Notes: generated by a model from the sequence alone, not told the origin. DNA of 44,561 bases from Thermodesulfobacteriota bacterium (GCA_036397855.1 DASWID010000130.1:1-44561); one strand, 5' to 3'. Numbered from the stretch's first letter, positions 24,814 to 28,796 are shown. Numbers and translations are program-made.

Positions 24814-25014
24814 CTATATTGCAATTCAAACTGTAATTAATTTATGAGATTTCGGGGTGACTTAGATTTTTTTTCAACCTTGACTCACTAAAATTTAATT
24901 AATCTGGGTATTCAAACCGCCTGGACAAAAATTAATAATTGCGAGGATTTTATATAATCTCACAAGCAGACCTCAAAAATTTGACACAAAAAGTCAGAAA
25001 AGACATTAAATATA
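24814..25014. other. Gap between panD and the next operon
   Basis: AT-rich DNA with no ORF. No clear terminator hairpin for the pan operon could be found. The promoter of the next operon begins at 25015. Confidence 0.4.
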
Positions 25015-25043
25015 TTGACATAATCATTTTGAGAGGTTATAAA
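25015..25043 (+). promoter_or_regulatory. Sigma70-type promoter for the cytidylyltransferase/CDP-alcohol operon
   Basis: TTGACA (25015-25020), exactly 17 bases, then TATAAA (25038-25043). The -35 box is perfect and the -10 box matches five of six. It lies about 120 bases upstream of the nucleotidyltransferase gene and just before a strong AAAGGAGG ribosome site. Confidence 0.65.
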
Positions 25044-25073
25044 TGTTAGCTATAAAAGGAGGAAGGATCAAGG

Positions 25074-25166
25074 GTGTACCTTAATCGTTTATTTCCCTCT
25101 AACGACCTTCTAATTAAATTCGAAAGGTTCGAAGAAATCACACTAAGGACGGAGAAGATTATATGA
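25074..25166 (+). CDS. Possible leader peptide coupled to the nucleotidyltransferase gene
   Basis: A 30-codon frame from GTG (VYLNRLFPSNDLLIKFERFE...) follows the strong ribosome site AAAGGAGG at 25055-25062. It ends in ATATGA, so its TGA overlaps the ATG of the next gene, the layout of translational coupling. A second mini-frame from ATG at 25043 (13 codons) uses the same region. I recognise no family; it may be regulatory or chance. Confidence 0.35.
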   Translation: MYLNRLFPSNDLLIKFERFEEITLRTEKII

Positions 25167-25936
25167 AAGCAGTGATACTAGCAGCGGGCAGAGGTAAAAG
25201 ATTATATCCCTATACAAAATATATACCAAAGTGCCTACTCGACATCGGAAGCGAAACAATTCTTGAGCACCAAATAAATCATATAAGAGATTGTGGTATC
25301 GACGAAGTAGTAATAGTGGTAGGATTTGGTTTTGAAAAAGTTGAGAATTTTCTTCGGAATTACGATGGGTTAGGGATGAAAATAAAGACACTCTATAACC
25401 CCTTTTATCAATCTACCAATAGCCTCATTTCACTTTGGATAGCCAGGGGAGAAATGGAGCAGGATATAGTTGTTATGAACGGTGATGATGTTTTTGAGAT
25501 TGAGGTGCTCGAACTGGCTCTTGGGGGCAGGGAAGAGAAGATCTGTTTGCCCATCAAGGTTAAAAAAAATTATGAAGAAGAAGATATGAAGGTTCATATG
25601 CGGGGAAAAAGAATTATCGAAATTGGTAAATCCCTAACAAACCGTTCATCCGCTGAATCGGTTGGTATTAGGGTTTTTAGAGACACCGGAGTCGAATTCC
25701 TTAAAAGAGCAATTGAAGAAGAGATGAGGATCGATGGCGCAGAAAATAAGTGGTATATATCTGCTATACACAGACTAATTAAGAAAGGGTATAAGATAAA
25801 ATCACTCGACATCAATGATTTGTTTTGGATGGATGTAGATTATCCTAGTGACCTATTTAAAGCACGTTTCAATTCCAATAAATTTCTTAAGAAACCATTT
25901 ACAGAAAGGATACTACGAGTTGTAGATTCGAATTAA
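25163..25936 (+). CDS. NTP transferase, cytidylyltransferase-like (LicC/inositol-1-phosphate type)
   Basis: A 257-residue nucleotidyltransferase predicted to activate a phosphorylated alcohol, such as inositol-, glycerol- or choline-phosphate, as a CDP derivative. The N-terminal signature LAAGRGKRLYPYTKYIPKCLL is complete. NPFYQSTNSLISLW is the arrangement seen in LicC and inositol-1-phosphate cytidylyltransferases. Metal-binding acidic sites are MNGDDVF and WMDVDYPSDL. The substrate is inferred mainly from the neighbour, a CDP-alcohol phosphatidyltransferase five bases downstream that would consume a CDP-alcohol. A GGAG ribosome site lies eight bases before the ATG. Confidence 0.85.
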   Translation: MKAVILAAGRGKRLYPYTKYIPKCLLDIGSETILEHQINHIRDCGIDEVVIVVGFGFEKVENFLRNYDGLGMKIKTLYNPFYQSTNSLISLWIARGEMEQDIVVMNGDDVFEIEVLELALGGREEKICLPIKVKKNYEEEDMKVHMRGKRIIEIGKSLTNRSSAESVGIRVFRDTGVEFLKRAIEEEMRIDGAENKWYISAIHRLIKKGYKIKSLDINDLFWMDVDYPSDLFKARFNSNKFLKKPFTERILRVVDSN

Positions 25937-25941
25937 TTAAG

Positions 25942-27261
25942 ATGGACCATGCAATAGTTGTAGCAGCCGGCACCGGCTTGGATGGGGAAAAGCTAAGCCC
26001 ATTTGGTCAAATCGTATTTGGAGAAATACCCCAATTTAAACGTCTTATCATTACGGCTCAGAGGGCCGGTATAAAAAGATTTTCTATTATAATTGAAAAG
26101 GACGATACATCCTTAAAGAACCTACTGGTTAATGACAAACGGATAGAAAGCGATATCGAGTGGCATCCCCTTGGAACACCGGTGAGTTTTAGCTCAACTC
26201 CCTCATTAATTCTACAATCAAATCTGGTAACTACACCCAGTGCTCTATCAGATTTGATTAACCATAAAATCAATCAAGAAGAAATCTTACTACTGATAGA
26301 CCAAGCTCGGGATGCGTGGCTAAAATCAAAAGGCGACCGTATAGAGGACATATTCCTAAGCGGGGGTAAAGCAGTTGGAGCCTTCATGGCTTCGGGCAAA
26401 CTCCTCGAAAAATCTATAATGAACTCTATGGATCTTAAGTCCTGGGTCCAGGAACTAATCAGTAGAGATAAAGTAACATTCACAAATTTTTCAGATGGTT
26501 ACTGGATGAGACTTACCTCGGATGACAAATCAGCTAAGATGGCAGAAGATCTTTTATTTTCACACGTCGGTAAAACAATGACCGGGTGGATATCAAAAAA
26601 CATAAACAGCAAAATTTCTCTGCGCTTAAGTCGGTATCTAGTTCGCACGCCACTTTCACCAAACATGCTCAGCATTTTAATTAACATAATCGGAATGCTC
26701 TGTGGTCCGTTTTACGCGATTGGACACCCAGTATGGGGTGCCGTTTTTCTTCAGATTGCAACCGTACTCGACCGGTGTGATGGAGAGGTGGCTCGGATAA
26801 AGCTTTTGGAAACAAAGAGGGGCCAATGGGTAGATACCGTCTCGGACCAGTTGACTATACTCTCATTCATAATTGGTGTGACATTTGGATATTATAATAT
26901 CACGAAGAGTCCGTTGGTTTTGGTATTTGGCGCGCTGAACCTGGGGATTTTTATATTCTTTTTAATCTGGTCATTCTATTTCCTACATAAATATACAAAC
27001 TCCGGCAGTTTGGTATCATACTTCAAAGTGGATAAACTGGTAGGGAAAGAAAACAGGACGATCCTTCATAAATTGATTTTGATCATTCGTCCGATGGGCA
27101 GGAGGAACTTCTACTCTCTCGCCTTTCTAGTAGCCGCTATCTTAGTGGGTTATCCTCTGGTTTTTCTTGGTCTTACAATATCCTTGATACTATTTTTGAT
27201 ACACCAAGTCGAAGATATTATCTTGATCAAAAGACTAAAGCCTGCCACCTCAACCGAATGA
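25942..27261 (+). CDS. CDP-alcohol phosphatidyltransferase with degenerate N-terminal nucleotidyltransferase-like domain
   Basis: A 439-residue integral membrane enzyme. The catalytic motif DxxDGxxARx8Gx3Dx3D is perfect at D277-D302 (D277, D280, G281, A284, R285, G294, D298, D302), followed by several membrane helices to about residue 430. Residues 1-205 look like a nucleotidyltransferase fold but lack the LAAGxGxR...PK signature (VVAAGTGLDGEKLSPFGQ), so they are probably inactive. The order resembles bifunctional inositol-1-phosphate cytidylyltransferase/di-myo-inositol-phosphate phosphate synthases. Here, though, an active nucleotidyltransferase is supplied by the separate gene just upstream. 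The product could be a phospholipid head group or a polyol phosphodiester; which one is unknown. Confidence 0.88.
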   Translation: MDHAIVVAAGTGLDGEKLSPFGQIVFGEIPQFKRLIITAQRAGIKRFSIIIEKDDTSLKNLLVNDKRIESDIEWHPLGTPVSFSSTPSLILQSNLVTTPSALSDLINHKINQEEILLLIDQARDAWLKSKGDRIEDIFLSGGKAVGAFMASGKLLEKSIMNSMDLKSWVQELISRDKVTFTNFSDGYWMRLTSDDKSAKMAEDLLFSHVGKTMTGWISKNINSKISLRLSRYLVRTPLSPNMLSILINIIGMLCGPFYAIGHPVWGAVFLQIATVLDRCDGEVARIKLLETKRGQWVDTVSDQLTILSFIIGVTFGYYNITKSPLVLVFGALNLGIFIFFLIWSFYFLHKYTNSGSLVSYFKVDKLVGKENRTILHKLILIIRPMGRRNFYSLAFLVAAILVGYPLVFLGLTISLILFLIHQVEDIILIKRLKPATSTE

Positions 27262-27288
27262 TATAGGCTTCCCTTGGAGTTTTCTTTG

Positions 27289-28095
27289 ATGAATGAACCA
27301 ACAAAATACACAGACACCGGTCAGTATTCTAAAGGAAACTCGTCAAACATAAATCAAAAAGAACCATATAACCCTCCTAAGAATTATGCACCGAAGTATA
27401 TCTCAGCCATCATAAATTGGGCTGAGGGTCTCATTGAGAGGTTTTCAGTCTATGGCAACCCTCGTATCTATGACAATTCTATTTTCCCCTGGGTCAGAGA
27501 AGTAGAGGATGAATGGATGAAAATTAGAGCCGAGCTTGAAAATGTTATGCTAAGAAGAGAGGAGCTTCCTAATTTTCATGAAATAACGAGTCAGGCAAAG
27601 CCCATTACAAATGACAATCAATGGAAGACATATATGCTCGCAGGTTATGGATTAGAAGGTGAAATGAATTCTAAGAGCTGCCCCGAAACAGCTCGTATCC
27701 TGAAGAAAATCCCTGGTATGAAAACTGCTTTTTTTTCTATTCTTTCGCCAAATAAACATATCCCTGCTCATAAGGGACCCTATAATGGGGTGCTTCGCTA
27801 CCATTTAGGCCTAATAGTACCTGAACCCAAAGAGCAATGCCGCATCCGTATCGGTGATGAAATAGTGCATTGGGAAGAAGGAACAAGCCTGATCTTTGAT
27901 GACACGTTCAATCATGAGGTTTGGAATGACACATCTGGATTCCGGGCCGTCTTGTTCGTTGATTTCGTAAGACCAGTGAAATTTCCTATAAACATCCTGA
28001 ATAAGATCATATTAAAAGCCGCTATATTCACACCTGTTATAAGAGAGGCTGCCGAGAACTACAAGAGATGGGAAAAGAAATTCTACAAGCAGTAA
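27289..28095 (+). CDS. Aspartyl/asparaginyl beta-hydroxylase-family dioxygenase (LpxO-like)
   Basis: A predicted Fe(II)/2-oxoglutarate dioxygenase of 268 residues. Spacing of the active-site residues matches the family: iron ligands H161 (AHKGPY) and H209 (TFNHEVWN), R170 and H172 in RYHLGL, and the 2-oxoglutarate-binding R219 (SGFRAVLFVDFVRP). Numbering is from the ATG at 27289, chosen because GGAG lies nine bases upstream; a TTG at 27274 is possible. Bacterial relatives include LpxO, which hydroxylates lipid A acyl chains. As the third gene of the CDP-alcohol operon it likely hydroxylates the same lipid or head group. The substrate is inference. Confidence 0.85.
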   Translation: MNEPTKYTDTGQYSKGNSSNINQKEPYNPPKNYAPKYISAIINWAEGLIERFSVYGNPRIYDNSIFPWVREVEDEWMKIRAELENVMLRREELPNFHEITSQAKPITNDNQWKTYMLAGYGLEGEMNSKSCPETARILKKIPGMKTAFFSILSPNKHIPAHKGPYNGVLRYHLGLIVPEPKEQCRIRIGDEIVHWEEGTSLIFDDTFNHEVWNDTSGFRAVLFVDFVRPVKFPINILNKIILKAAIFTPVIREAAENYKRWEKKFYKQ

Positions 28096-28156: not shown

Positions 28157-28796
28157 TCATTGCTTCTCATTGCTATTATTATAGATTAAAATAGCTAGAG
28201 ATTCGGGATTTCTAAAAAGCATCATAAAGCAAAAAACAAGTATTCCAATTTTAACACCCCACGAAGAAAGCATAAATATGATAAGCTCTAGAAATCCGAA
28301 CAAAACGATGCCTATTGTACCAGCCCAAAAGTCCATCTCATCAAGGGTTCTATTTATGAATATTATTAAGGGTGCGCTTATAAGAATAATGGCCCCAGTG
28401 AGCAATACAGCAGGTCTCCTTGATAACCTAAACTCATCTTGAAAAAACGATATTACCGGTTTGATAATAGCAACGGAAGAGGTCAATCCCGCAAATATCG
28501 CCGGAAGGCTGATGAAACCCAGGTTGAACACCCCCGATTTCGCGATTGATACAGCTCCTGCGATACCAAAAAAAGCGATAATATAGCGATAATATAAGGT
28601 ATCATGAAGGCGCCACCCCCGTTTTCTGCAGCTTGGACGGGAAACCGCAAGAAATTTCCCAAACCAATCGCATTGCCGGCCATGGCTAAAATAAGTCCGG
28701 TCCTGCTTAGCCAAAACTCTCTTTTATTTGGTACCTTTCGTGGACACCGTGGTTTCTTAGCAAAAATCGCTGTTACTTTAAGTAATTATTTTCCAT
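28157..28796 (-). pseudogene. Decayed neurotransmitter:sodium symporter (SNF/NSS) family transporter
   Basis: The first membrane helix, with [25 protein letters not shown], is encoded around 28600-28700, but the C-terminal half ([16 protein letters not shown]...[10 protein letters not shown]...) sits in a different frame. Helices of the middle of a normal protein of about 450-500 residues are missing. An 11-bp tandem duplication (GCGATAATATA at 28575-28585 and 28586-28596) lies exactly at the frame break; removing one copy would join both parts in frame. So a large in-frame deletion came first, then the duplication. The N-terminus near 28700-28796 also shows a frame change. The gene is non-functional. 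Confidence 0.85.

What the first reader, a model, noticed from the sequence alone, without database searches (positions are those of the whole stretch)
24961..28095. Cytidylyltransferase / CDP-alcohol phosphatidyltransferase / AspH-type dioxygenase operon
Three intact genes sit close together behind a near-consensus promoter. They encode an active-looking nucleotidyltransferase, a membrane CDP-alcohol phosphatidyltransferase and an Fe/2-oxoglutarate dioxygenase of the LpxO/AspH family. Each family is known, but I know of no described pathway with this trio. Read in order: activate a phospho-alcohol with CTP, transfer it to a lipid or polyol, then hydroxylate the product. A novel hydroxylated head-group lipid or a di-inositol-phosphate-type solute is possible.
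Basis: partly seen in the sequence, partly recalled or inferred. Interest (0 to 1): 0.62.

Follow-up and report, generated by a model that had tools for sequence, protein, structure and literature searches.

The report
CDP-inositol-type head-group pathway plus acyl hydroxylase
Three neighbouring bacterial genes most likely activate inositol phosphate with CTP, attach it to a still unknown acceptor (perhaps a membrane lipid), and, in some species only, hydroxylate a lipid fatty acid; the first two genes are kept by nearly every member of a bacterial class that appears to have an outer membrane without lipopolysaccharide.

Summary
The trio is real and intact. NT (25163-25936) is an active-looking COG1213-type cytidylyltransferase. 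CAP (25942-27261) is a six-TM CDP-alcohol phosphotransferase fused to a dead nucleotidyltransferase-like domain, as in AF2299. OH (27289-28095) is an OlsC-like Fe/2-oxoglutarate acyl hydroxylase. NT and CAP form the unit: CAP is found in 55 of 58 genomes of the class, NT lies directly upstream in every locus read, and in three genomes the pair has moved together without its neighbours. OH is accessory (22 of 58).

The likeliest substrate of NT is inositol-1-phosphate. The genome encodes MIPS. An unrelated genome carries MIPS, a stand-alone NT and a CAP with a degenerate N-domain in one operon, and seven others carry MIPS next to fused versions. CAP lacks one of the arginines that hold inositol phosphate in PIP synthases, so its acceptor is probably not phosphorylated; lipid or soluble is unresolved. 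OH is not LpxO, because the class lacks LpxC, and it cannot act only on ornithine lipid, because 12 OH-bearing genomes lack OlsB.

Kin are known (IPCT/DIPPS; the putative Prevotella NTP-transferase/CDP-AP route), so this is a new variant. No activity was tested.

The parts
25015..25043 (+). promoter-like site TTGACA-17-TATAAA
   Evidence: only match of TTGACAN16-18TATAAW in the window, 0.06 expected; consensus only
25163..25936 (+). NT: stand-alone COG1213-type cytidylyltransferase, 257 aa, predicted CTP:inositol-1-phosphate cytidylyltransferase
   Evidence: Pfam; R13, K23 and D108 invariant in 29 sequences, matching R16/K26/D112 of IPCT by motif (PMC12275187); AF2 pLDDT 88.9; fold hits IPCT 4jd0, LicC 1jyk, IPCT 2xme
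25942..27261 (+). CAP: CDP-alcohol phosphotransferase with N-terminal nucleotidyltransferase-like domain, 439 aa
   Evidence: AF2 pLDDT 84.6, six TM helices; fold hits IPCT-DIPPS 4mnd and AF2299 4o6n
25942..26586 (+). CAP residues 1-215: degenerate (dead) nucleotidyltransferase-like domain
   Evidence: aligns with NT by profile (95.9% probability) but without the Arg/Lys/Asp catalytic residues
26770..26847 (+). CAP residues 277-302: CDP-alcohol phosphotransferase signature D277xxD280G281xxA284R285x8G294xxxD298xxxD302
   Evidence: all eight residues invariant in 39 sequences
27100..27114 (+). CAP residues 387-391 RRNFY, at the place of the RxxR acceptor motif of PIP synthase/DIPPS
   Evidence: alignments; the same GRRNxY motif in L135 CAP beside MIPS
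27289..28095 (+). OH: OlsC/LpxO/AspH-type Fe(II)/2-oxoglutarate acyl hydroxylase (TTG start at 27274 also possible)
   Evidence: PF05118 3.1e-53; NF052565 OlsC 341 bits; H166, H214 and R224 (numbered from the TTG) align with the AspH active site

Best explanation
NT and CAP are a two-step head-group pathway. NT joins CTP and L-myo-inositol-1-phosphate (made by the genome's MIPS) to give CDP-inositol; NT supplies the cytidylyltransferase activity that the decayed N-domain of CAP has lost. CAP, in the membrane, transfers phosphoinositol from CDP-inositol to an acceptor that carries no phosphate at the site where PIP and DIPP synthases hold one, giving a phosphodiester without a phosphatase step. 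The acceptor is more likely a membrane lipid or envelope alcohol than inositol-1-phosphate. OH is an accessory, later-acting enzyme that 2-hydroxylates an acyl chain of a membrane lipid (possibly the NT-CAP product, possibly ornithine lipid). Shown: gene content, catalytic residues, conservation, joint movement of NT-CAP, and MIPS operons with related pairs elsewhere. Inferred: substrates, acceptor and order of steps.
For: NT keeps the IPCT catalytic residues (PMC12275187), and its nearest folds are IPCT and LicC. CAP keeps the whole CDP-AP signature, and its best folds are IPCT-DIPPS and AF2299. Relocated NT-CAP pairs lie without panD or OH in L035, L012 and L038. NT is usually the most conserved gene of the neighbourhood, 82-89% where panC is 53-65%. 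MIPS is in 54 of 61 genomes searched, including the window's own. In other lineages, MIPS, a stand-alone NT and a CAP with degenerate N-domain form one run (L135), and seven fused NT+CDP-AP genes sit next to MIPS (L124, L125, L127, L128, L129, L132, L137). Choline kinase is over cut-off in 1 of 61. The TM6 arginine of PIPS and of the fused paralogues is D425, invariant in CAP.
Against: The class also has a PIPS-like CDP-DAG enzyme, so MIPS presence alone does not prove that NT uses inositol. COG1213 enzymes also use phosphocholine, phosphoglutamine and phosphoglycerate (PMC12275187), and AF2299 bound CDP-glycerol (PMC4634129). MIPS is not next to NT-CAP in this class (own copy on contig C187). 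Six TM helices were said to go with soluble acceptors (PMC4634129). The RxxR alignment near R388 is ambiguous, and L135 CAP is only 22% identical to CAP.
Confidence: 0.55

Rival explanations
1. NT-CAP makes a soluble phosphodiester solute (di-inositol-phosphate, glycerophosphoinositol or the like), as in hyperthermophiles.
For: CAP fold is closest to IPCT-DIPPS; six TM helices, which PMC4634129 links to soluble acceptors; both enzyme types occur in DIP synthesis.
Against: An acceptor-site arginine kept by PIPS and the fused paralogues is replaced (D425; Y391 possibly another). The pair is kept in 1-Mb genomes, where a dispensable stress solute would be an odd thing to retain (inference).
Confidence: 0.25
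2. NT activates another phospho-alcohol (glycerol phosphate, phosphoglycerate, ethanolamine phosphate) and CAP builds the matching head group.
For: COG1213 enzymes are substrate-diverse; CpgD makes CDP-glycerate for an anionic lipid (PMC12275187); AF2299 bound CDP-glycerol (PMC4634129).
Against: MIPS operons with related NT/CDP-AP genes in eight other genomes; choline kinase almost absent; PE is served by PssA and PSD.
Confidence: 0.25
3. OH is simply OlsC acting on ornithine lipid; its place after CAP reflects local synteny, not a shared pathway.
For: Best NCBIfam match is OlsC; OlsB is in the own genome; OH and OlsB are associated (10 both, 2 OlsB only, 12 OH only, 34 neither; Fisher p 0.0005, not corrected for kinship).
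Against: 12 genomes have OH without OlsB, for example G017 (97% complete), with no other PF13444 gene there; the score is below the OlsC cut-off.
Confidence: 0.4
4. OH is LpxO acting on lipid A.
For: Weak LpxO match (116 bits, cut-off 500).
Against: LpxC is absent from all 58 class genomes while control genomes such as E. coli ring.
Confidence: 0.02

Closest known systems
IPCT/DIPPS (bifunctional inositol-1-phosphate cytidylyltransferase / DIPP synthase, 4mnd, NF041135)
   Same: CTP activation plus CDP-AP transfer; same two folds; related genes beside MIPS in other lineages
   Different: here two proteins, with a dead N-domain in CAP; acceptor-site arginine changed; 93 bits against a cut-off of 580
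AF2299 CDP-alcohol phosphotransferase (4o6m)
   Same: cytidylyltransferase-like N-domain plus six-TM CDP-AP; best PDB sequence match
   Different: I know of no settled physiological substrate for AF2299; it was seen with CDP-glycerol in its donor site (PMC4634129)
putative alternative inositol-lipid cluster of Prevotella/B. vulgatus (PMC9246714; an apparent example is L003)
   Same: NTP transferase next to a CDP-alcohol phosphatidyltransferase, MIPS in the genome; Kennedy-like logic proposed
   Different: no HAD gene here; CDP-AP of a different subfamily (24% identity) without N-domain; MIPS not adjacent; unconfirmed in Bacteroidetes too
CpgD (PMC12275187)
   Same: COG1213 cytidylyltransferase with 4jd0 as nearest fold; feeds an anionic lipid that supports growth without LPS
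   Different: uses phosphoglycerate; sphingolipid pathway; a CDP-AP partner is not described in the parts read
OlsC ornithine-lipid acyl hydroxylase
   Same: family and catalytic residues
   Different: below the equivalog cut-off; occurs without OlsB

Membership tests
IPCT/DIPPS | one protein with active cytidylyltransferase and CDP-AP domains | tested here: not met
   CAP N-domain has lost the catalytic residues; that activity is in the separate NT
IPCT/DIPPS | curated NF041135 score | tested here: not met
   87 and 93 bits against 580
IPCT/DIPPS | acceptor-site arginines for inositol phosphate | tested here: inconclusive
   TM6 Arg replaced by invariant D425 (Arg seen in PIPS-like proteins and fused paralogues; the DIPPS fragment available ends before it); RxxR alignment ambiguous
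IPCT/DIPPS | makes DIPP from CDP-inositol and inositol-1-phosphate | not testable with these tools
   needs enzymology
Class I CDP-alcohol phosphotransferase | DxxDGxxAR...GxxxDxxxD signature in a six-TM fold | tested here: met
   all eight residues invariant, six TM helices, fold match
AF2299-like CDP-AP | cytidylyltransferase-like N-domain fused to CDP-AP | tested here: met
COG1213-type cytidylyltransferase | catalytic Arg, Lys and Asp (R16/K26/D112 in T. maritima IPCT) | tested here: met
   R13, K23, D108 invariant in 29 sequences; positions matched by motif
Prevotella-type alternative inositol-lipid cluster | NTP transferase and CDP-AP adjacent | tested here: met
   adjacent in 39 relatives
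Prevotella-type alternative inositol-lipid cluster | HAD hydrolase and MIPS in the same cluster | tested here: not met
   neither at the locus; MIPS on another contig
OlsC | curated NF052565 score | tested here: not met
   341 against 450 bits
OlsC | ornithine-lipid synthase in the genome | tested here: inconclusive
   OlsB in own genome, absent from 12 of 22 OH genomes
LpxO | lipid A made by the host | tested here: not met
   no LpxC in 58 class genomes

The most novel reading that the evidence does not exclude
In a class of LPS-less diderm bacteria, NT-CAP makes the main inositol-phosphate lipid (or envelope glycolipid) of the outer membrane by a Kennedy-type CDP-inositol route, which in part of the class is 2-hydroxylated by OH, taking the structural place of lipid A.
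Probability: 0.15. Interest if true: 0.78.

Novelty: new variant of a known kind. Interest (0 to 1): 0.5.

Why it matters
Inositol lipids are rare in bacteria and the CDP-inositol route to them is only hypothetical. A split NT plus dead-domain CAP, kept through an entire class down to 1-Mb genomes, with MIPS operons in other lineages, gives a defined enzyme pair on which that route can be tested. It may also show what LPS-less diderm bacteria use as outer-membrane lipid.

Tried and rejected
The genome-contig scan with CAP found only one weak Bacteroidales locus. LpxO function was rejected (no LpxC). A choline pathway was made unlikely. The 551-aa PF13444 protein (G000:C110) was considered as OlsF; its N-terminal part looks like GNAT, so it was set aside without a formal test. 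MIPS co-occurrence within the class was rejected as proof by itself, because a PIPS-like enzyme also needs inositol phosphate. MAFFT placed TM5-TM6 of CAP badly against the paralogues, so RxxR was compared by hand and is marked ambiguous. A tree of OH showed that extra copies do not form one clade, so no functional split was inferred.

Full report
Observation. The three ORFs are present and intact: NT 25163-25936, CAP 25942-27261 and OH, whose likelier start is the ATG at 27289. Pfam assigns NTP_transferase, CDP-OH_P_transf and Asp_Arg_Hydrox. Upstream lie panB, panC and panD; downstream lie a broken transporter gene and dksA.

NT. The protein has the residues of an active cytidylyltransferase: R13, K23 and D108 are invariant in 29 sequences and correspond by motif to R16, K26 and D112 of the T. 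maritima inositol-1-phosphate enzyme named in PMC12275187. The AF2 model (pLDDT 88.9) matches that enzyme best (4jd0), then LicC and the A. fulgidus inositol-1-phosphate enzyme. Members of this family use several phospho-alcohols, so fold alone does not settle the substrate.

CAP. Residues 1-215 align with NT by profile (95.9% probability, 21% identity) but have lost the catalytic Arg, Lys and Asp residues. The C-terminal part carries the whole CDP-alcohol phosphotransferase signature, invariant in 39 sequences, and has six TM helices in the model (pLDDT 84.6). Nearest folds are IPCT-DIPPS 4mnd and AF2299; nearest sequences AF2299, then IPCT-DIPPS. PMC4634129 reports that PIP synthase holds the phosphate of inositol phosphate with two arginines, one in an RxxR motif and one further on. 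In CAP the position of the second (TM6) is Asp425, invariant, with His421 also invariant; the fused paralogues and the class's PIPS-like proteins keep the arginine. At RxxR, CAP has RRNFY; R388 may or may not correspond to the functional arginine. I infer an acceptor without that phosphate. The same paper links six TM helices with soluble acceptors, which speaks against a lipid acceptor.

OH. H166, H214 and R224 (numbered from the TTG) line up with the AspH active site. The best NCBIfam match is OlsC at 341 bits, cut-off 450; LpxO gives 116 of 500. Hydroxylation of ornithine lipid by OlsC has been shown for Brucella microti and Ochrobactrum (PMC5767591).

Distribution. In 58 genomes of the class (G000-G057), CAP is found in 55; the three without are G023, where the contig carrying the locus ends 60 bp past OH, G037 (77% complete) and G043 (59%). 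NT lies directly upstream of CAP in all 39 relatives whose flanks were read. Because the surrounding pan-dksA-mtnA order is itself conserved, adjacency alone is weak evidence; but in G003 and G006 (L035, L012) the pair lies beside ABC-transporter genes, and in G007 (L038) beside a different set, each time without panD or OH. NT is usually the best conserved gene there. OH is present in 22 of 58 genomes and is always next to CAP or at a contig end there; G000, G004 and G005 have an extra copy elsewhere. The family with the smallest genomes (f8) keeps NT-CAP and lacks OH.

Which alcohol? MIPS is in 54 of 61 genomes searched, including the own one at C187. This alone is not specific, since the class also has a PIPS-like enzyme (own: 155 of 180 bits for archaetidylinositol-phosphate synthase). 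The stronger evidence is outside the class. A sample of 75 genomes from other lineages holds no close CAP (best 128 bits), but genes of the same kind turn up beside MIPS: L135 has MIPS, a stand-alone NT and a CAP with degenerate N-domain and the motif GRRNIY, in one run; L124, L125, L127, L128, L129, L132 and L137 have a fused NT+CDP-AP gene next to MIPS. Four of these MIPS genes were confirmed with Pfam (L125, L132, L135, L137); the others are judged from evident sequence similarity. Six further loci of the sample had no MIPS next to them in the DNA read (L130, L131, L133, L134, L136, L138). Choline kinase is over its cut-off in 1 of 61 genomes.

Which substrate for OH? LpxC is absent from all 58 class genomes, so lipid A is excluded. 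OlsB is strong in 12; OH occurs with OlsB in 10 and without in 12, among them G017 at 97% completeness. OH therefore has, at least in some genomes, a substrate other than ornithine lipid. That it is the NT-CAP product is suggested only by position.

Mechanism proposed. MIPS makes inositol-1-phosphate; NT makes CDP-inositol; CAP transfers phosphoinositol to an unphosphorylated acceptor; OH, where present, hydroxylates an acyl chain. Only the gene facts are shown; substrates and order are inferred.

Comparison. The logic equals that of IPCT/DIPPS and of the putative CDP-inositol plus DAG route proposed, unconfirmed, for Prevotella (PMC9246714), of which L003 is apparently an example. It is not a member of either by the features tested: the fusion is broken up, an acceptor residue differs, HAD and MIPS are not in the cluster. 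The class has Omp85 in all genomes and no LpxC, so it looks like an LPS-less diderm group; CpgD in Caulobacter, also of the NT family, feeds a lipid that helps survival without LPS. That parallel motivates the novel case but is not evidence for it.

Verdict. A real, deeply conserved two-gene pathway with an accessory hydroxylase; new variant of a known kind; interest 0.5.

Noticed in passing
window 28157-28743 (-): Remnant of a sodium:neurotransmitter-symporter-like transporter that is about 518 aa in relatives (e.g. L036:7070-8626); residues 2-54 and 306-427 align next to each other, so about 250 residues are missing.
   Followed up: partly
G000-G057 (whole class): Omp85 in every genome but LpxC in none: apparently diderm bacteria without LPS.
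   Followed up: partly
G000 (C26, C67, C130): Only three CDP-OH_P_transf genes: PssA beside PSD, a PIPS-like one and CAP; no clear PgsA, while the small-genome family (f8) has a 187-aa PgsA-like gene.
   Followed up: partly
L124, L127, L129, L133, L057, L058, L060, L061: A DUF4202/HD-type gene follows the fused NT+CDP-AP gene in many lineages (DUF4202 confirmed by Pfam for L124; others by similarity): a possible further partner in the inositol cluster.
   Followed up: partly
L136:1756-5663: Three consecutive CAP-like proteins (396, 404 and 474 aa) with degenerate N-domains in one contig of G110.
   Followed up: no
L130:1599-2957: Fused gene with intact NT domain and an RRDFF acceptor motif like CAP's, between a radical SAM gene and an MMPL/RND-like transporter gene.
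   Followed up: no
L098:5100-5924 (G000:C43): Second OlsC-like hydroxylase of the own genome (369 bits for OlsC), away from NT-CAP and OlsB.
   Followed up: partly
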